NCBI RefSeq assembly: GCF_001468005.1
Contig: NZ_LNYY01000019.1
Coordinates: 1,857,070-1,921,069 of the forward strand
Source: Legionella steelei
Lineage (GTDB): Bacteria; Pseudomonadota; Gammaproteobacteria; Legionellales; Legionellaceae
DNA: 64,000 nucleotides
Reading direction: 5' to 3'
Both the position numbers and the translations under genes were made by a program. This document shows positions 2,124-12,280 of the stretch, in pieces (the first letter of the stretch is position 1; every line of letters begins with the position of its first letter). A model generated the notes under the pieces. The model was given only the letters and a program-made list of their open reading frames with translations, was not told the DNA's origin and ran no database searches.

Positions 2124-3227
2124 ATGAACATTACGGAAATTCATATTGCGCAATTAACGATTCCATTAATTCGTCCATTTATAACGGCCGTAAGACGCAC
2201 TGAATGCGTTGAGGATGTGGTCATCATAATTAAAACGGATAGTGGCAATCTAGGTTATGGTTCCGCAGCGTCAACTCCAGCCATCACTGGCGACAATACG
2301 GAATCGATTATCAATGCAGTTAAAGCCATTCTGGGGCCACAGTTAATTGGACGCAGTATTTCTGAACTGAATGTATTGCTCCAAATGAATAACCAAGCCA
2401 TCGCAGGTAATACTTCTGCAAAGGCGGCCATTGATATGGCATTGCATGATTTGTTTGCCCAATACTGTGGTTTACCTCTTTATAAATTGCTGGGAGGGAA
2501 TACGAACAGTATTAGTTCGTGTATTACTATAAGCGTTAAAGAGATTGATGCAATGGTGCAGGATGCAGTTGAGCTGGCCAATCAAGGACACCAAACCATT
2601 AAAATAAAATTAGGCTTAAATCCAATTGAAGACATCCAACGCGTCCAAGCAATTCGCCGCGCAGTAGGCAATTCCATCACCTTACTTGTAGATGCCAATC
2701 AAGGATGGTCTTATGATGAAACCTTAAAGGTTATTGATGCTTTGCAACAACAGCATTTGCATATTCCGATGATCGAACAACCTATTAACGCACGGGATCT
2801 ACCGCACTTAAAGACTATTAGCGAACAAGTTGAATGTCTCATCATTGCCGACGAGGCTTGTTTTTCCCCTGAGGATACACTGAATATTGCCAAAATTAAT
2901 GCCTGTGATGGTGTCAATATTAAGTTGATGAAATCGGGGGGCCTTGAGAATGCTCAGGCCATTTATCATATTGCTAAAGCCGCACACATGAAAATAATGG
3001 TCGGTTGTATGTTGGAATCGCCAATTGGGGTTGCTGCAATAGCCAGTTTTGCTGTAAGTAAGCCAGATATTGCCTACGCAGACCTTGATCCTATTTACTT
3101 GATTCGTGACAATTATATTTCTGGTGGGGCACAACGTCTTGGCAATAAAATCATCTTGTCAGACAAACCAGGCTTAGGAATTGAAGGCATTGCCCAGGGA
3201 TTAAATAAGATTGGAGTGATCCATTAA
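2124..3227 (+). CDS. Dipeptide epimerase (L-Ala-D/L-Glu epimerase type), enolase superfamily
   Basis: 367 residues with the muconate-lactonizing-type enolase-superfamily layout. There is an N-terminal capping domain, then a barrel with the K-x-K acid/base pair in TIKIKLG, a metal Asp in LLVDANQGW, metal Glu in IEQP and IADEA, and the opposite-face Lys in KLMKSGG. This combination is typical of L-Ala-D/L-Glu epimerases (YcjG/YkfB family), which epimerise dipeptides from murein recycling. The gene abuts the GAF gene upstream and overlaps the permease downstream by one base, so the epimerase and permease probably handle the same imported dipeptides. Exact specificity cannot be read from the sequence. 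Confidence 0.85.
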   Translation: MNITEIHIAQLTIPLIRPFITAVRRTECVEDVVIIIKTDSGNLGYGSAASTPAITGDNTESIINAVKAILGPQLIGRSISELNVLLQMNNQAIAGNTSAKAAIDMALHDLFAQYCGLPLYKLLGGNTNSISSCITISVKEIDAMVQDAVELANQGHQTIKIKLGLNPIEDIQRVQAIRRAVGNSITLLVDANQGWSYDETLKVIDALQQQHLHIPMIEQPINARDLPHLKTISEQVECLIIADEACFSPEDTLNIAKINACDGVNIKLMKSGGLENAQAIYHIAKAAHMKIMVGCMLESPIGVAAIASFAVSKPDIAYADLDPIYLIRDNYISGGAQRLGNKIILSDKPGLGIEGIAQGLNKIGVIH

Positions 3228-4513
3228 TGTCTTTTTACATGCAGTTAGCCAGTTTAGTCATTATTGTTCTTTATGTCGTGATGTTATTTCGCAATGTTGA
3301 TCCTTTAATCGCGACGGCACTCTGTGTTGGCCTAGGCTATTTGTGGAATCTAAGCAGCCCCATTGCCATCGGCAATTCTATGGCTGCAGCTTTAGGCTCA
3401 TTCATGGCCTTAGTTGGTTTTATTATCATGTTAGGCCATGGCTTAGGTGAGGTCTTAACGCATACCCAAGTCAGTCATACCTTGGTGCACCAAATTGTTT
3501 ATGGGATTGGGGTTAATACACAACGACGAGCTAAAATTGGCATAGTACTTTCGTCGTTTGTCATTGTCGGTTTGCTTGGCACCTTGGCTGGAGGATTGGC
3601 TATTTTAGCACCTAGCTTACGCCCTATTGCAGGTTCAGTGGGGCTCTCACGCCCAAGTTTGGCGGTGTTAATGCAGGCTTCGGCTGAAGAAGCTTTAATT
3701 ATTGGGCCTTTTGCGCCGCCAGTAGTGGCTTTACTGGGCATTACCGGACTAAATTATCAGTCTGTCCTTTTATATGCATCTCTCCCAGTAGCCATAATTA
3801 CTTTAATGACTACATGGGTTATGGCTAACCAATTACAGCGACAATATGCACATGAGTCTTGCGAAGACGAGGACACCTCAGAGCCATTTGTTCCCAATAA
3901 ACAGCAAAAGCGCGCCACATTACTTTTTTTGCTCTCCTTTATGGCGTGCATCGTCTATGGTTTATTGACTCAGGCCAAAACCTCCTACGTTATTTTTGTT
4001 ATGTTATTGCTCGCGCTGCTTACTGGATTAGCGAGTAAATTAAGCTTAAAACAAATTTTTAAATTGTTAGTTGAAGGAATGCGCAAAAGCCTGCATCTCT
4101 TCTTTTTGTTTATTTTGTTTGATCCTTTTATGGTTTTGATTCATCAGGCAGGGGGATTTAATGCCTTAACCGAACTATTAACCCCATTAATTAATTTAGG
4201 TGGCAAACCTGTATTGTCGATGTTAATTGGCTTCACTGGAGCGTTTGGCATGCCAGGCGCTGCTGAAGCAACCATTAAAATGTTACATCAGCTTTTTTCG
4301 TCTAGTGTAGTGCAGATGCAATTGCCGATGATAACGTTTGCGTTATGCATGATCTTCGCAACCCGTGTTACTAATTATGCCTATCCAGGAGCGAATATGT
4401 TTGCAGCCATGGGTTTTGCTGGCAGCGAAAATGTTAAAGCAATGATACAAAACGGACTCGCCGTGACTGCCGTACAAGTCTTATTTCTCGTTATATATAG
4501 TTTATTTCTATAA
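3227..4513 (+). CDS. Multi-spanning permease (ion-transporter-like), substrate unknown
   Basis: 428 residues with about 11-12 hydrophobic segments. Two related halves are each marked by a small-residue/Pro re-entrant-type loop (ASAEEALIIGPFAPPV at about 148-163, and a GMPGAAEAT motif near 345). That two-loop design resembles the GntP/citrate-type ion transporter superfamily. It overlaps the dipeptide epimerase by one base, which suggests uptake of a dipeptide or carboxylate used by that enzyme. No family name can be assigned securely. It ends the cluster that starts at 214. Confidence 0.7.
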   Translation: MSFYMQLASLVIIVLYVVMLFRNVDPLIATALCVGLGYLWNLSSPIAIGNSMAAALGSFMALVGFIIMLGHGLGEVLTHTQVSHTLVHQIVYGIGVNTQRRAKIGIVLSSFVIVGLLGTLAGGLAILAPSLRPIAGSVGLSRPSLAVLMQASAEEALIIGPFAPPVVALLGITGLNYQSVLLYASLPVAIITLMTTWVMANQLQRQYAHESCEDEDTSEPFVPNKQQKRATLLFLLSFMACIVYGLLTQAKTSYVIFVMLLLALLTGLASKLSLKQIFKLLVEGMRKSLHLFFLFILFDPFMVLIHQAGGFNALTELLTPLINLGGKPVLSMLIGFTGAFGMPGAAEATIKMLHQLFSSSVVQMQLPMITFALCMIFATRVTNYAYPGANMFAAMGFAGSENVKAMIQNGLAVTAVQVLFLVIYSLFL

Positions 4514-6564: not shown

Positions 6565-7071
6565 TTATTTGGGTGGCACTATATTAGCTGAACACGTATC
6601 TGCAATTGAATAAATACCTTCTTTGTATTGTTGATCCGTCATCGAATCTGATTGTTTAAAAAGATCTAATAGCTTAGGCTGCGCACATTGACAAAAATCA
6701 GCTACCATTTTTTGCTCTTTATCTGACGATTTGTCTTTACTAACATTCAACATGTTTTTGCAAGCACTCATCATGTCAGAGTCCGTTGTATTTGTATCTA
6801 AATTATCTGTTGCATAATGTAACAAAGCATTAAAGAAGCATGTCTTTGTTATTTTATTACTATCTTCATTGTTATGATTACTCTTAAGTTGCTCGACCAT
6901 ACAATCACACATCGTTTCATTAAATTTTTTATATTCTGGAGTGTTATTTTCAGGTGTATCATGCTTGGTTATCGCTTTCATGCAGGATTGAAAATTCGCA
7001 TCCTGCTCAGCAAAAATTGGGGCTGATAAAATACAGAAAGAAAACAAAATCAACAGTTTTTTTATTATCAT
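6565..7071 (-). CDS. Small secreted Cys-containing protein
   Basis: 168 residues from ATG at 7071, chosen because AAAGGGA lies about nine bases upstream and a clean signal peptide follows (MIIKKLLILFSFCILSAPIF then an AEQ cleavage region). A longer frame reaching 7176 has no ribosome site. The mature part has about eight Cys spaced in C-x-C or single positions (CDCM, CQCA), which suggests disulphides in the periplasm. The family is not recognised. Two Cys-x-Cys-containing segments about 90 residues apart may be an internal duplication. Confidence 0.7.
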   Translation of the reverse strand: MIIKKLLILFSFCILSAPIFAEQDANFQSCMKAITKHDTPENNTPEYKKFNETMCDCMVEQLKSNHNNEDSNKITKTCFFNALLHYATDNLDTNTTDSDMMSACKNMLNVSKDKSSDKEQKMVADFCQCAQPKLLDLFKQSDSMTDQQYKEGIYSIADTCSANIVPPK

Positions 7072-8222: not shown

Positions 8223-9164
8223 CTATACAGAATAAGCCGCACGATGAGAATAAGAAACTTCATCATCAGCAATCGGAACTTCATAGCCTTTTTCTAGTGC
8301 ATGGCGGCGCAGTACAATTGCATTATGAATTGCTTCCGTTATTTGTTTGGTGCTATGCACTAAGCCTGGTCTTTGTTGACGCATATTATTAAGTATCTCT
8401 AGTATGCGCTCGGTAATTACATCAGGGTCATCGCTTGAAAAAATAGCTGAATAATTCTTTAAGATTTCCATAGTGAGAATGAGGTGACCAGTTCGACCAT
8501 GGCCGTGTTTACAGTGGACAAAGACAGGATGTTCGACTGAAATCTTAAAAATCTTCCACAGTATCTCTTTTTTCTGATCATTTGGATCAATATTTAAATC
8601 AATGTAACTCCCGTCTTTTAATTCAATACCAATTACCCCTACACGTTGATTATTTCCTTCAGTGCTCACTGTGATTTCAGATTCAGTAAATATATTGGGT
8701 TTTGACTCCTCATGTCCATGATGAAAAACATAACTACCGCCGAGATGTTTCCTCGTAACATGATAAGGTCCAACATCATAACTCTTTTTTTTCATGTAAT
8801 AATTTAAAAAATCAACACCTGAAGGACAAGTATCTAATTCAGAGACACGATTACCTATTGCGATGATGTATGCTATAGGTGGGTCGCGAAATAGAGTGTC
8901 TTTAAAGAAACGAATCAAATCATCTGCATTTTTGGGACCAGCTGTAGCAGAAAAATTAGTGTTAGGAATGCTATTTGAAGGGCGAATAAACGATTTGTCC
9001 TTAATTCTTGCATGCTCTTTGGCGTAAATTGGTCCTTTAATAAAACGTTTTTTTACTGTCCTGATTACTTGAGCAATAATTTCAGGGGAAGGTCCTACTT
9101 CTTGTTTAACCGTTGGTTTTTTATTTTTCGATAAATTTCGTTTGATTTCATGTAGAAAAAACAT
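8223..9164 (-). CDS. Protein tyrosine phosphatase-like protein, candidate Dot/Icm effector
   Basis: 313 residues. The P-loop reads VHCKHGHGRTG, with nucleophile C218 and R224. It is followed at about 260-275 by a QRPGLVHSTKQ stretch that matches the Q-loop region of classical tyrosine phosphatases. The first 80 residues are basic and not part of the fold, and no signal peptide is seen. Legionella delivers several phosphatases into host cells through Dot/Icm, so an effector role is plausible but inferred. The C-terminus (IADDEVSYSHRAAYSV) is only mildly acidic. The gene stands alone. Confidence 0.75.
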   Translation of the reverse strand: MFFLHEIKRNLSKNKKPTVKQEVGPSPEIIAQVIRTVKKRFIKGPIYAKEHARIKDKSFIRPSNSIPNTNFSATAGPKNADDLIRFFKDTLFRDPPIAYIIAIGNRVSELDTCPSGVDFLNYYMKKKSYDVGPYHVTRKHLGGSYVFHHGHEESKPNIFTESEITVSTEGNNQRVGVIGIELKDGSYIDLNIDPNDQKKEILWKIFKISVEHPVFVHCKHGHGRTGHLILTMEILKNYSAIFSSDDPDVITERILEILNNMRQQRPGLVHSTKQITEAIHNAIVLRRHALEKGYEVPIADDEVSYSHRAAYSV

Positions 9165-9490: not shown

Positions 9491-10495
9491 ATGTCGCTGT
9501 TAATCAATTACATGAAGACGTTCCGCTTCCTCTTAAGACGGAATGACTTGAGTTCTTTTGTCCAAGAGCACGACCGCCTATTCTCTCTTGCGAAGCAAAC
9601 TCATAATCATACGGTCGTTGCCTCCCATTATTATGACCTTATGGCGGAAGTGATTGAGATCGCTTACGGCACCAGTTGGGTTTTTTATCCGCCCGATCAT
9701 GTAGGACAATCACGCGAGGAGACCATTTCCAACTTGCATAAGCAGATCAATTCAGCGCTCTGCCTTTTACCCGGAAAAACAGCGCTTGATATGGGCTGCG
9801 GTCTTGGTGGCGCAGCACGTGATATTGCCCGGATTTCCCAGGGAAAAGTGCTTGGGGTCACATTGTCTCAGGCCGAAGTAGATCGAGCGAACGCCCTCAA
9901 TCGCGAACAAAATCTGGACCACTTGTGCGAAGTCACACAGGGGGACTATACACAAAATTTGCCGTTTCCTGATAATTTCCTGGCCTCGGCTTACAGCATT
10001 TACTCACTTAAATACATTTCCAATGACTTGCTGCCCAAAGTATTTGGACACGTCCATCGTGTCATGGAGCCGAATGCAAGATACGTAGTCTATGACGCAG
10101 TTCTGACATCTAAATACGATGCAAATAATCCACAACATCGCGCTCTGGTTGAGCGGATTGAGTTTGTGACTGGCATGCCGCCCCTGCACTCGAGTGACGA
10201 TCTGATAAATGCAGCCCGCAGCGTCGGCCTAAGCCTACTTTCTGAAACAGAAATTTCAAAAGAGCTTGGGTGGAGCTATTTCTTTACCGAAAACAAGCTG
10301 CTGGCTGGTACGCTTCGCTCTCGGGCAGTAGGGAGCGCGATTTCAGGCCTTGAAACAGCTCGTCTGTTTCCAAAGGGCTTTTCAGAGTTTTACAATATTT
10401 TCATTGCAGGGACGGTGAACGCCCTGGTCGATGCGGACCGCTTAGGCATCGTGTCATTCTCTCGGTTGTTCGTCTTTGGCAAGACCGACTCCTGA
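9491..10495 (+). CDS. Sterol C-24 methyltransferase-like SAM methyltransferase
   Basis: 334 residues from ATG at 9491, where AAGGAGGAAACCT gives a strong ribosome site; the frame is open upstream without one. The SAM loop is LDMGCGLGG (99-107). Features specific to sterol methyltransferases are visible: AYGTSWVF at 58-65 in place of region I (YEYGWG-x-SFHF), YSIYSLKYI at 168-176 in place of region III, and a C-terminal segment from LFPKGF to FVFGK that resembles the SMT C-terminal domain. The usual region III Glu is missing, so activity or substrate may differ. Base use is visibly more GC-rich than neighbours, which suggests transfer. It is first of three co-directional genes with two steroid-type enzymes. 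Confidence 0.75.
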   Translation: MSLLINYMKTFRFLLRRNDLSSFVQEHDRLFSLAKQTHNHTVVASHYYDLMAEVIEIAYGTSWVFYPPDHVGQSREETISNLHKQINSALCLLPGKTALDMGCGLGGAARDIARISQGKVLGVTLSQAEVDRANALNREQNLDHLCEVTQGDYTQNLPFPDNFLASAYSIYSLKYISNDLLPKVFGHVHRVMEPNARYVVYDAVLTSKYDANNPQHRALVERIEFVTGMPPLHSSDDLINAARSVGLSLLSETEISKELGWSYFFTENKLLAGTLRSRAVGSAISGLETARLFPKGFSEFYNIFIAGTVNALVDADRLGIVSFSRLFVFGKTDS

Positions 10496-10538
10496 TGTTT
10501 TTAAAAAGGGCTGGATAACTAAATATAAGTTAAAAATC

Positions 10539-11534
10539 ATGAAAATATTAGTCACTGGAGCTAGTGGACACATTGGAAATAACCTCATTGCTGAGCTTAT
10601 TAAAAAGCAATATGATGTCCGAATACTTGTGCGCAGTGAAATACCCAAATATCTCTCTCATTTTCCTTTGGAGGTATGCAAGGGAGATATTTTACATCAG
10701 GAGTCGTTGTATGACGCGACTCACAATATCGATACAGTTTTTCATTTAGCCGCAAAAATTTCTATTACCAATCGAGAAGCAGACGATGTCCGTAAAACAA
10801 ACATCCAGGGCACCCAAAATGTGATCAATGCTTGTCTTAAAAATCAAGTCAACAAGCTCGTTCATTTTAGTTCCATCCACGCCCTCACTCAAAGTTCTAA
10901 AAAATCCAATACGCCTCACATTTTAAATGAAGATTGCCCGCTTGCTTTAGAATCCGTGAATATTTACGATCAATCTAAAGCCTATGCTGAAAAAATAGTG
11001 CTTGATAGTTGTGAGCAAGGATTAAATGCGGTGGTGGTTAATCCCACAGGAACAATTGGTCCCAATGACTATAAACTGTCCCTCATGGGAACGGCAATAA
11101 TTAAAATATACAAAGGACACATCCCTATTCTGGTTCGAGGAGGATATAATTTTGTTGACGTTCGTGACGTGGTTCAAGGGGCGATAGCCGCTGCTGAAAA
11201 AGGCAAATCTGGAGCGCGCTATATTTTAGGTGGCCACGACATAAACATGCATCATTTGCTCAGGTTGATAGCCATTGTAAAACAAAAAAAAATGACTCGT
11301 TTGTTTCTTCCCCCAAGTATGCTTTCCTGGGTGGTACCCCTCATGGAGTTTTTTTCTAAAATCACAAATACAGAACCGCTCTTTACAAAATACTCAATTG
11401 AGACGTTGATGTATCCACCCAAAGTGGATTGTACGAAAGCGGAAAATGAATTGGGGTACAAGAAAACTGAAATCGAGACAACGATCCATGATACGCTTCA
11501 TTGGCTTTCACAGTCTGGCAAGATTAAAATATGA
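10539..11534 (+). CDS. Extended SDR, 3beta-hydroxysteroid dehydrogenase/isomerase-like
   Basis: 331 residues from ATG at 10539; the longer frame starting at 10476 overlaps the methyltransferase and lacks support. The N-terminal Rossmann motif is TGASGHIG (G7, G10, G13). The HLAAK motif, SS-x-HA, and the catalytic pair YDQSK (Y and K near 148-152) follow, then the NPTGTIGP segment of extended SDRs. The closest family layouts are 3beta-HSD and dihydroflavonol reductase types, which oxidise or reduce hydroxyl groups on NAD(P). With a sterol-type methyltransferase before it and a steroid reductase overlapping it, a 3beta-hydroxysteroid role is the best inference. The next gene starts inside its stop (ATGA, four-base overlap). 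Confidence 0.72.
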   Translation: MKILVTGASGHIGNNLIAELIKKQYDVRILVRSEIPKYLSHFPLEVCKGDILHQESLYDATHNIDTVFHLAAKISITNREADDVRKTNIQGTQNVINACLKNQVNKLVHFSSIHALTQSSKKSNTPHILNEDCPLALESVNIYDQSKAYAEKIVLDSCEQGLNAVVVNPTGTIGPNDYKLSLMGTAIIKIYKGHIPILVRGGYNFVDVRDVVQGAIAAAEKGKSGARYILGGHDINMHHLLRLIAIVKQKKMTRLFLPPSMLSWVVPLMEFFSKITNTEPLFTKYSIETLMYPPKVDCTKAENELGYKKTEIETTIHDTLHWLSQSGKIKI

Positions 11535-12280
11535 CTCAAAACAATCTCACTTTATTTCTTTATTTCTGGAATGCTATAGCCATTATGGTTTTCTTCACGC
11601 TCTTTTTCAAACGAGCGCCTTATGGACGTTATGAGCAAGGGAATAAATCTCTTAAAATCCCAGCGAATGTTTCTTGGTGTTTGATGGAATTGCCATCTGT
11701 GATCACATTTTTGCTTATTTTTCTAATGGCCAAACCATCTGCTTATACCTGGGTATTTTTTGCAATGTGGCAACTCCATTATGTCTATCGCTCATTAATC
11801 TATCCGTTTCGCCTGAAAAATGCGAAACAGGTTCCAATTTTTATCACGATATCCGCCACGTTTTTTACGACAGTGAATGGTTTTGTAAATGCCTATTGGC
11901 TGACTCATTTTCAAGAAATTACATTTTCAACATTGCAAACGCAACACTTTATCGTTGGTTTGATACTTTTTGTTTCAGGATTTGTAATCAATGTAAATTC
12001 GGACAACATTTTGTTTGCGATTAATAAAAATAAAAAACCCGGAGTTTACAAAATACCCTACGGCGGCATGTTTCGCTTTTTGAGTAGCCCAAATTATTTT
12101 GGTGAAATTCTCGAGTGGATTGGTTGGGGAGTGGCGACTTGGTCAATTGCCGGTTTTTCTTTTACTTTGTGGACAATAGCCAATTTAGCTCCTCGAGCGC
12201 TCACCCATCATCGGTGGTATCGCACACAGTTTTCCAATTATCCTAAGGAAAGAAAAGCGCTCATTCCGTTTCTTTATTGA
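11531..12280 (+). CDS. Steroid 5-alpha-reductase (SRD5A/DET2)-like membrane enzyme
   Basis: 249 residues with about six membrane helices. The C-terminal quarter carries the SRD5A signature: a PNYFGEILEWIGW block, then HHRWY, then NYPKERKALIPFLY at the very end. In eukaryotes this is the NADPH-binding end of steroid 5-alpha-reductase and DET2, which reduce the delta-4 double bond of 3-oxo-steroids. Length matches that family (about 255-260). Start and stop overlap the preceding gene by four bases (ATGA), so the two are translationally coupled. This is the strongest single reason to view the cassette as acting on steroids or sterols rather than generic lipids. Confidence 0.85.
   Translation: MTQNNLTLFLYFWNAIAIMVFFTLFFKRAPYGRYEQGNKSLKIPANVSWCLMELPSVITFLLIFLMAKPSAYTWVFFAMWQLHYVYRSLIYPFRLKNAKQVPIFITISATFFTTVNGFVNAYWLTHFQEITFSTLQTQHFIVGLILFVSGFVINVNSDNILFAINKNKKPGVYKIPYGGMFRFLSSPNYFGEILEWIGWGVATWSIAGFSFTLWTIANLAPRALTHHRWYRTQFSNYPKERKALIPFLY

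What the first reader, a model, noticed from the sequence alone, without database searches (positions are those of the whole stretch)
9491..12280. Three-gene sterol/steroid-modifying cassette with eukaryote-like enzymes
Seen: three co-directional genes, the last two overlapping by ATGA. They encode a methyltransferase with sterol-methyltransferase regions I-III and its C-terminal domain, an extended SDR with YxxxK, and a protein with the SRD5A/DET2 C-terminus (PNYFGE, HHRWY, YPKERKALIPF). Known: Coxiella and some amoeba symbionts carry eukaryote-derived sterol reductases without making sterols themselves. Inference: this organism alters host (amoebal) sterols, by side-chain methylation and A-ring oxidation/reduction. 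I know of no described bacterial operon of this composition in Legionella. The first gene is more GC-rich than its surroundings, which fits acquisition.
Basis: partly seen in the sequence, partly recalled or inferred. Interest (0 to 1): 0.85.

Follow-up and report, generated by a model that had tools for sequence, protein, structure and literature searches.

The report
Legionella three-gene steroid-modification cassette
Some Legionella species carry a conserved three-gene unit whose last two enzymes look built to oxidise and saturate the A ring of a steroid or sterol, probably one taken from the host, while the first enzyme is a divergent relative of sterol methyltransferases whose substrate is not settled.

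Summary
The cassette is real: methyltransferase 9491-10495, SDR 10539-11534, SRD5A 11531-12280, all +, last two overlapping by ATGA. All three occur in this order in 7 of 45 Legionella genomes searched, in differing surroundings and under purifying selection. Gene 3 is a secure steroid 5alpha-reductase homologue; its nearest relatives found are bacterial. The SDR is a relative of HpnA and SdmB but passes neither cut-off. The methyltransferase aligns with a recalled yeast Erg6 better than with the other non-orthologous proteins in one BLAST set, but shows no Pfam SMT C-terminal domain and a changed region III. So A-ring chemistry is supported, side-chain methylation undecided, eukaryotic origin unsupported. 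The genome has no cyclase match but an ERG4/ERG24 reductase, as have 34 of 45 Legionella genomes. Best reading: a bacterial SDR-SRD5A steroid module, joined in some Legionella by an Erg6-like methyltransferase, acting on imported host sterol. New variant of a known kind. Bench tests of the Legionella genes are referred.

The parts
9491..10495 (+). SAM-dependent class I methyltransferase, divergent Erg6-like, 334 aa
   Evidence: ORF (listed from an upstream GTG; ATG at 9491); Methyltransf_25 8.3e-14, Methyltransf_11 4.1e-12; 27% over 244 aa, 103 bits with recalled yeast Erg6; no Sterol_MT_C; 88-93% identical in 6 other Legionella
10539..11534 (+). extended SDR oxidoreductase, relative of HpnA, SdmB and 3beta-HSD, 331 aa
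   Evidence: Epimerase 7.3e-35, 3Beta_HSD 2.8e-28; HpnA 246.4 bits (cut-off 367.65), SdmB 189.2 bits (cut-off 600); 85-90% identical in 6 other Legionella
11531..12280 (+). steroid 5alpha-reductase homologue (SRD5A/DET2 family), 249 aa
   Evidence: Steroid_dh 2.3e-48; PbSRD5A 7c83 3.1e-61, human SRD5A2 7bw1 7.3e-41; 9 of 11 tabulated catalytic/NADPH residues as in human SRD5A2; 85-90% identical in 6 other Legionella
11531..11534 (+). ATGA overlap of SDR stop and SRD5A start, kept in 7 of 7 carriers

Best explanation
The cassette is an operon-like unit for modifying a sterol or steroid that the bacterium probably does not make. Genes 2 and 3 form an A-ring module: the SDR oxidises the 3beta-hydroxyl to a ketone (a Delta5 bond then moving to Delta4), the membrane-embedded SRD5A reduces the Delta4 bond with NADPH to the 5alpha form, and the SDR may reduce the ketone back, giving a 5alpha-stanol or a 3-oxo-5alpha product. 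Gene 1 is a SAM-dependent methyltransferase of Erg6-like descent that methylates the same lipid at a position not known. The substrate is most likely amoebal sterol that enters the bacterial membrane. Shown: the genes, their families, linkage and selection, SRD5A active-site conservation in part, no cyclase match. Inferred: substrate, reaction order, host source, methylation site, co-transcription.
For: Steroid_dh at 164.4 bits and 3.1e-61 to a solved enzyme that reduces progesterone (PMC7815742, passages). Glu57, Tyr91 and NADPH contacts N160, D164, N193, E197, R227, H231, Y235 of HsSRD5A2 kept in the window protein. SDR near triterpenoid-associated SDR models (HpnA 246.4, SdmB 189.2 bits) and 3Beta_HSD 99.2 bits. 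SDR-SRD5A pair in the same order in G073 (36% and 44%) with a SnoaL_4 gene 18 bp downstream; that ketosteroid isomerase shares this broad fold is recalled. Unit kept in 7 genomes with differing flanks; mean dN/dS 0.11, 0.16, 0.16 over 21 pairs each. Own genome: no SQHop_cyclase_C match, but an ERG4_ERG24 protein, 5.2e-65, 1.3e-60 to solved Delta14-sterol reductase 4quv.
Against: Gln56 of the QEY motif is Met, and Q56A/L killed human SRD5A2; but Met is also in 8 of 9 other bacterial homologues fetched (two of them near-identical) and in recalled plant DET2. R171 aligns with Asn in 7 of 7 carriers and N160 is His in anisa and PC1000. In the stretches fetched around 9 non-Legionella SRD5A loci no gene 1 homologue was found, and a gene 2 homologue in 2 of 9 (tblastn, E <= 1e-3). 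Top NCBIfam model for the SDR is named sugar epimerase. No evidence of sterol uptake; promoter/terminator scan at chance level. PMC2667531 (discussion) says that L. drancourtii has almost all of the predicted genes for the first part of sterol biosynthesis, so an endogenous precursor is not excluded.
Confidence: 0.52

Rival explanations
1. Secondary-metabolite tailoring: the three enzymes decorate a small non-steroid molecule (polyketide, terpenoid or lipid enone); SRD5A reduces an enone, the SDR a ketone, the methyltransferase adds a methyl group.
For: Closest solved methyltransferases include MitM (6.3e-11), 4pne and 5gm1; that these are natural-product enzymes is recalled. In L. gratiana an NRPS-like gene lies next upstream (L013 4303-7659) and in L. 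steigerwaltii a HalD-family gene about 1 kb downstream (L011 11813-12577).
Against: Each of these neighbours was seen at one carrier; surroundings differ between carriers. SRD5A matches solved steroid reductases far better than the only other solved match, a very-long-chain enoyl-CoA reductase (210.7 and 143.9 bits against 48.1).
Confidence: 0.2
2. Polyprenol saturation: the pair works like DHRSX-SRD5A3 (recalled), oxidising a polyprenol, reducing the alpha double bond and reducing the aldehyde back, to make a dolichol-like lipid.
For: Same oxidise-reduce-reduce logic (inference); the substrate would be endogenous, so no import is needed.
Against: The best solved matches are named 3-oxo-5-alpha-steroid 4-dehydrogenases; no SRD5A3 sequence was compared. 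A methyltransferase has no known role there (recalled).
Confidence: 0.1
3. Full sterol conversion including C-24 methylation: gene 1 is a working sterol C-24 methyltransferase and the cassette turns host Delta24 sterols into 24-methyl stanols.
For: Alignment with recalled Erg6 incl. the block TSKYDANNPQHR against TDKYDENNPEHR, partly shared by the Legionella L008-L009 proteins and not evident in the Streptomyces, Sphingobium or L065 proteins.
Against: No PF08498 match; region III Glu replaced by Tyr; 27% identity, below the 30% and 1e-50 limits that a published bacterial SMT survey used (PMC10070321, passages).
Confidence: 0.15
4. The genes are decaying leftovers without function.
For: A broken SRD5A piece lies elsewhere in this genome and another in a genome without the cassette.
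Against: All three ORFs open in 7 of 7 carriers and mean dN/dS 0.11-0.16.
Confidence: 0.03

Closest known systems
Steroid 5alpha-reductases PbSRD5A (7c83), HsSRD5A2 (7bw1), plant DET2 (recalled)
   Same: Steroid_dh domain, Glu57/Tyr91 and most NADPH residues, alignable to the C-terminal end
   Different: Met for Gln56 and Asn for R171 against the two solved enzymes; 42% to PbSRD5A and 35% to human over the aligned parts; substrate untested
Bacteroides 5beta-reductase / 5alpha-reductase / 3beta-HSDH conversion of 3-oxoLCA (PMC11271093, passages)
   Same: 5alpha-reductase together with an SDR; in a Phocaeicola record Steroid_dh, Oxidored_FMN and adh_short genes follow one another
   Different: there a classical SDR and an FMN reductase, no methyltransferase beside them; here an extended SDR and an Erg6-like methyltransferase. 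That the Phocaeicola genes are this pathway is my inference
Coxiella Stmp1 (PMC8787468, passages) and Legionella drancourtii sterol Delta7-reductase (PMC2667531, abstract and discussion)
   Same: sterol-modifying enzyme in an intracellular, amoeba-resistant bacterium
   Different: sterol reductases (ERG4/ERG24 family, recalled), one gene; here three genes of other families
Sterol C-24 methyltransferase Erg6 (recalled) and bacterial SMTs (PMC10070321)
   Same: class I methyltransferase, 27% over 244 aa to recalled Erg6, shared YDxNNPxHR block
   Different: no Sterol_MT_C, region III altered
HpnA and SdmB SDRs
   Same: full-length profile matches
   Different: 246.4 bits against 510-515 for three HpnA proteins; 189.2 bits against an SdmB cut-off of 600

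Membership tests
Steroid 5alpha-reductase (SRD5A1/2/DET2) | Pfam Steroid_dh domain over its cut-off | tested here: met
   164.4 bits, cut-off 22.6
Steroid 5alpha-reductase (SRD5A1/2/DET2) | QEY catalytic motif (Q56, E57, Y91 of HsSRD5A2; PMC7815742) | tested here: inconclusive
   E and Y kept, Q is M in 7 of 7 Legionella and in 8 of 9 other bacterial homologues fetched
Steroid 5alpha-reductase (SRD5A1/2/DET2) | reduces 3-oxo-Delta4 steroids | not testable with these tools
   needs an assay
Sterol C-24 methyltransferase | Sterol_MT_C domain PF08498 | tested here: not met
   no match with the limit at E 10; recalled Erg6 control 97.3 bits. One search also found it in 0 of 92 genomes, but no control genome rang there, so that call shows nothing by itself
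Sterol C-24 methyltransferase | region III signature with Glu (YAIEATCHAP of recalled Erg6) | tested here: not met
   YSIYSLKYIS
Sterol C-24 methyltransferase | at least 30% identity and E <= 1e-50 to yeast Erg6 (limits of PMC10070321) | tested here: not met
   27% over 244 aa, 103 bits, E 3e-29 for the single comparison with the recalled sequence
Sterol C-24 methyltransferase | transfers methyl to C-24 of a sterol | not testable with these tools
   needs an assay
HpnA hopanoid-associated SDR | NCBIfam TIGR03466 over cut-off 367.65 | tested here: not met
   246.4 bits; three controls 510-515
HpnA hopanoid-associated SDR | hopanoid cyclase in the genome | tested here: not met
   no SQHop_cyclase_C match in G000; rings in 2 of 14 control genomes
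SdmB sterol demethylase SDR | NF052578 over cut-off 600 | tested here: not met
   189.2 bits
Extended SDR / 3beta-HSD superfamily | Rossmann GxxGxxG, YxxxK, 3Beta_HSD or Epimerase domain | tested here: met
   TGASGHIG, YDQSK; 99.2 and 120.9 bits
De novo sterol or hopanoid producer | squalene/oxidosqualene cyclase | tested here: not met
   The squalene epoxidase search is not informative: weak matches in 45 of 45 genomes and in E. coli and Caulobacter controls

The most novel reading that the evidence does not exclude
A group of Legionella species carries an operon that remodels amoebal membrane sterol at both ends, alkylating the side chain and saturating ring A to a 5alpha-stanol, on top of an ERG4/ERG24 sterol reductase common in the genus: a bacterium without cyclase that runs a partial plant/amoeba-like sterol pathway on host lipid.
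Probability: 0.15. Interest if true: 0.8.

Novelty: new variant of a known kind. Interest (0 to 1): 0.52.

Why it matters
If right, sterol handling in Legionella goes beyond the single reductase described in L. drancourtii, and there is a defined gene set with which to ask what bacteria gain from changing the sterols of an amoeba vacuole. It would also be a second setting, outside gut Bacteroidota, for an SDR-SRD5A module, with an Erg6-like methyltransferase added.

Tried and rejected
AlphaFold2 of the methyltransferase with the 7-row alignment A1 gave mean pLDDT 44.7; not used, no fold search was run, and the second job was not spent. Viral contigs: 202 pattern stretches, none encodes a relative of the methyltransferase (one scan of 8). 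Plasmids at E <= 1e-5: SRD5A in 2 records (Phocaeicola, Nocardia); methyltransferase in 61 records, 20 listed, identity at most 29.2% among those; the Nocardia record is on both lists, but the two places lie about 1.6 Mb apart; so no cassette there. PADLOC: one weak mad2 match for gene 1, 39.1 bits, none for the others; a defence role is rejected. Promoter/terminator scan: 12 promoter-like sites against 10.4 expected, 5 terminator-like against 3.3; no weight given. Squalene epoxidase PF08491: matches of at most 31.3 bits in 45 of 45 genomes and in two controls; not informative. PF08498 in 92 genomes: none, but no control rang. Gene 1 profile in 398 phylum genomes: 3 at 1e-12, own included, the other two partial domain matches; not every first-look candidate was scored, so these counts are lower bounds. 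Eukaryotic donor: unsupported, not disproved. Sugar epimerase for the SDR: lowered, not excluded.
Full report
What is there. Three ORFs on the + strand, 9491-10495, 10539-11534 and 11531-12280, match the given coordinates; the last two overlap by ATGA. The gap between genes 1 and 2 is 24-112 bp in the seven carriers (43 in the window) and the ATGA overlap is present in 7 of 7. Co-transcription is inferred from this, not shown; the promoter/terminator scan is at chance level.

Distribution. In 92 genomes (own and relatives) the methyltransferase has full-length matches of 88-93% in 6 genomes besides G000; the next by E-value are 22-24%. SRD5A (85-90%) and SDR (85-90%) have their top matches in the same 6 genomes at adjacent coordinates. 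In the genus search 9 of 45 genomes match at 1e-10: 7 are these orthologues, 2 are the 22% proteins. The 45 genomes held are not claimed to be the whole genus. Surroundings differ: by my reading there are five kinds among seven carriers (window; steigerwaltii; anisa with PC1000; bozemanae with parisiensis; gratiana), with some genes shared between kinds. Two genes (window 2124-4513) lie directly downstream of the unit in gratiana, bozemanae and parisiensis but about 5 kb upstream in the window, and window 6565-7071 has an 89% match just upstream in steigerwaltii. In the flanks fetched, only the three-gene unit is common to all seven at tblastn 1e-15.

Selection and composition. Nei-Gojobori dN/dS, 21 pairs per gene (not independent): means 0.109, 0.156, 0.160, maxima 0.146, 0.204, 0.234. 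Gene 1 has GC 0.467-0.492 in the seven carriers, gene 2 0.361-0.397, gene 3 0.369-0.403; in the window gene 1 is the highest of 41 ORFs of 150 aa or more. This fits a separate origin of gene 1 but names no donor.

Gene 3. Steroid_dh 2.3e-48. Three solved relatives: PbSRD5A 210.7 bits, human SRD5A2 143.9, a very-long-chain enoyl-CoA reductase 48.1. PbSRD5A is a seven-TM protein that prefers progesterone, has limited activity on androstenedione and none detected on testosterone (PMC7815742, passages). Of 11 residues named there, the window protein keeps E57, Y91, N160, D164, N193, E197, R227, H231, Y235; Q56 is M and R171 aligns with N. Q56A/L was dead in human SRD5A2. M is found in 7 of 7 Legionella, in 8 of 9 other bacterial homologues I fetched (the ninth, G121, has F; G684 and G775 are near-identical) and in the recalled DET2; solved PbSRD5A has Q. 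Identity to the window: G622 46%, G073 44%, G720 43%, PbSRD5A 42%, G121 41%, Phocaeicola 38%, recalled DET2 37%, G618 37%, Nocardia 36%, human 35%, G684 34%, G775 32%. In the tree of 19 rows the seven Legionella rows hold together (100/100) but their place is weakly supported; the recalled DET2 falls with G720 and G618 (88/92). A eukaryotic donor is thus neither supported nor excluded. The family is rare in the samples: 2 of 398 phylum genomes at 1e-30 and 7 of 369 class genomes at 1e-25, own included in both. These are lower bounds, since not every first-look candidate was scored, and the profile contained G073, so that row's score is inflated.

Gene 2. Epimerase 120.9 bits, 3Beta_HSD 99.2 bits. 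NCBIfam: HpnA 246.4 bits against a cut-off of 367.65, SdmB 189.2 against 600. Three proteins that pass the HpnA cut-off (L040-L042), from the three genomes with the strongest cyclase matches, score 510-515 for HpnA and 237-248 for SdmB; the G073 SDR scores 234.7 and 234.3; two other Legionella homologues (L043, L047) match OleD-type models at 1e-30 and not these. Gene 2 is a relative of both triterpenoid-associated SDR groups and a member of neither as modelled. 'Sugar epimerase' is the name of the HpnA model.

Gene 1. Pfam gives general methyltransferase domains and CMAS. Sterol_MT_C does not appear with the limit at E 10 in the window protein or the L. parisiensis orthologue (HMMER's filters drop most matches above 0.1). 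A recalled yeast Erg6 is recognised by the same library (97.3 bits) and also hits CMAS and UbiE, so those hits say little. Window against Erg6: 27% of 244 aa, 103 bits. In the same BLAST set the other non-orthologous proteins give 85.5 (L008), 82.0 (L009), 81.3 (L010), 78.2 (L065), 76.3 (Streptomyces), 62.0 (Sphingobium, annotated delta(24)-sterol C-methyltransferase) and 29.6 bits (L066, a cut ORF). L008 and L009 are themselves a little closer to Erg6 (118 and 116 bits with Erg6 as query) than gene 1 is (107). Solved structures: best 52.6 bits with the profile, HMMER scale, not comparable with BLAST bits; a chain named 24-sterol C-methyltransferase (6f5z) matches only at 0.008. So gene 1 leans to the Erg6 side, with region III altered and no recognised C-terminal domain. 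I do not call it an SMT.

Module evidence elsewhere. In G073 SDR and SRD5A are in the same order and overlap by the listed starts, and a SnoaL_4 gene follows 18 bp on, same strand. In the stretches fetched for nine non-Legionella SRD5A loci (G073, G121, G622, G720, G618, G775, G684, Phocaeicola, Nocardia), gene 2 has a tblastn match at 1e-3 in 2 (G073 36%; G720 26%, convergent), gene 1 in none. In the Phocaeicola record Steroid_dh, Oxidored_FMN and adh_short genes follow one another, which resembles the Bacteroides 5beta-reductase, 5alpha-reductase and 3beta-HSDH conversion of 3-oxoLCA to isoalloLCA (PMC11271093, passages).

Genome setting. No SQHop_cyclase_C match in G000; it rings in 6 of 92 genomes and 2 of 14 controls. 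ERG4_ERG24 is over the cut-off in 34 of 45 Legionella genomes, G000 included, and in 0 of 14 controls; the G000 protein matches solved Delta14-sterol reductase 4quv at 1.3e-60 and the next gene has a P450 match of 53 bits. PMC2667531 (2009; abstract and discussion seen) held L. drancourtii to be the only Legionella with its sterol Delta7-reductase. A family match is not the same as that orthologue, which I did not test. The same discussion says L. drancourtii has almost all of the predicted genes for the first part of sterol biosynthesis, which counts against a flat claim that Legionella make no precursor.

Mechanism. The reading is in Best explanation. The sterol would have to reach the bacterial membrane; Coxiella Stmp1 is a published sterol-modifying protein located in the bacterial outer membrane and not secreted through the T4BSS (PMC8787468, passages). 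Which product is made here, and why, is not shown. PMC9806796 (passages) reports that host cholesterol matters for L. pneumophila replication in macrophages (title) and mentions only L. drancourtii for a Legionella sterol reductase in the passages seen.

Print search. Five searches, judged from titles and abstract starts in the listings, showed no paper on such a cassette in Legionella: with 'sterol methyltransferase' (4 papers), '5-alpha reductase' (1), 'sterol reductase' plus Coxiella (20 papers, 10 listed), 'oxo-5-alpha-steroid' (0), L. bozemanae + L. anisa + sterol + genome (0). The library is open-licence PMC only.

Scores. Interest 0.52: real, conserved and unusual, but its firmest part is a known kind of enzyme pair, and the striking part, side-chain methylation, failed three membership tests. 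On checking, the odds of the novel case were set from 0.17 to 0.15 so as not to exceed the matching rival.

Noticed in passing
L081 3614-4909 and 5027-6874 (G000:C19 about 331613-334873): ERG4/ERG24 sterol-reductase family gene (5.2e-65; 1.3e-60 to 4quv) followed by a gene with a P450 match (53 bits); the reductase family is over the cut-off in 34 of 45 Legionella genomes, wider than the 2009 report suggests.
   Followed up: partly
L056 5287-5506 and L057 4907-5131: Broken 3' pieces of an SRD5A-like gene in this genome (86% DNA identity to the cassette copy over 221 bp) and in G008, where the cassette was not found (78% over 232 bp), with stops inside; they suggest gain and loss.
   Followed up: partly
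L008, L009, L010: A second divergent Erg6-like methyltransferase family in Legionellaceae (one on a 373,394-base L. lytica replicon), 22-24% to gene 1 and 106-118 bits to recalled Erg6; no Sterol_MT_C in the matches shown (for L008 the best 25 of 26).
   Followed up: partly
window 8223-9164, -: Protein with a tyrosine-phosphatase domain match (36.4 bits) beside the cassette, without a tblastn match at 1e-15 in the fetched flanks of the other six carriers.
   Followed up: no
L013 4303-7659 and L011 11813-12577: NRPS-like gene beside the cassette in L. gratiana; HalD-family gene about 1 kb from it in L. steigerwaltii.
   Followed up: no
L056 4453-5283: Lipid_desat domain protein (65 bits) just beside the broken SRD5A piece.
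   Followed up: no
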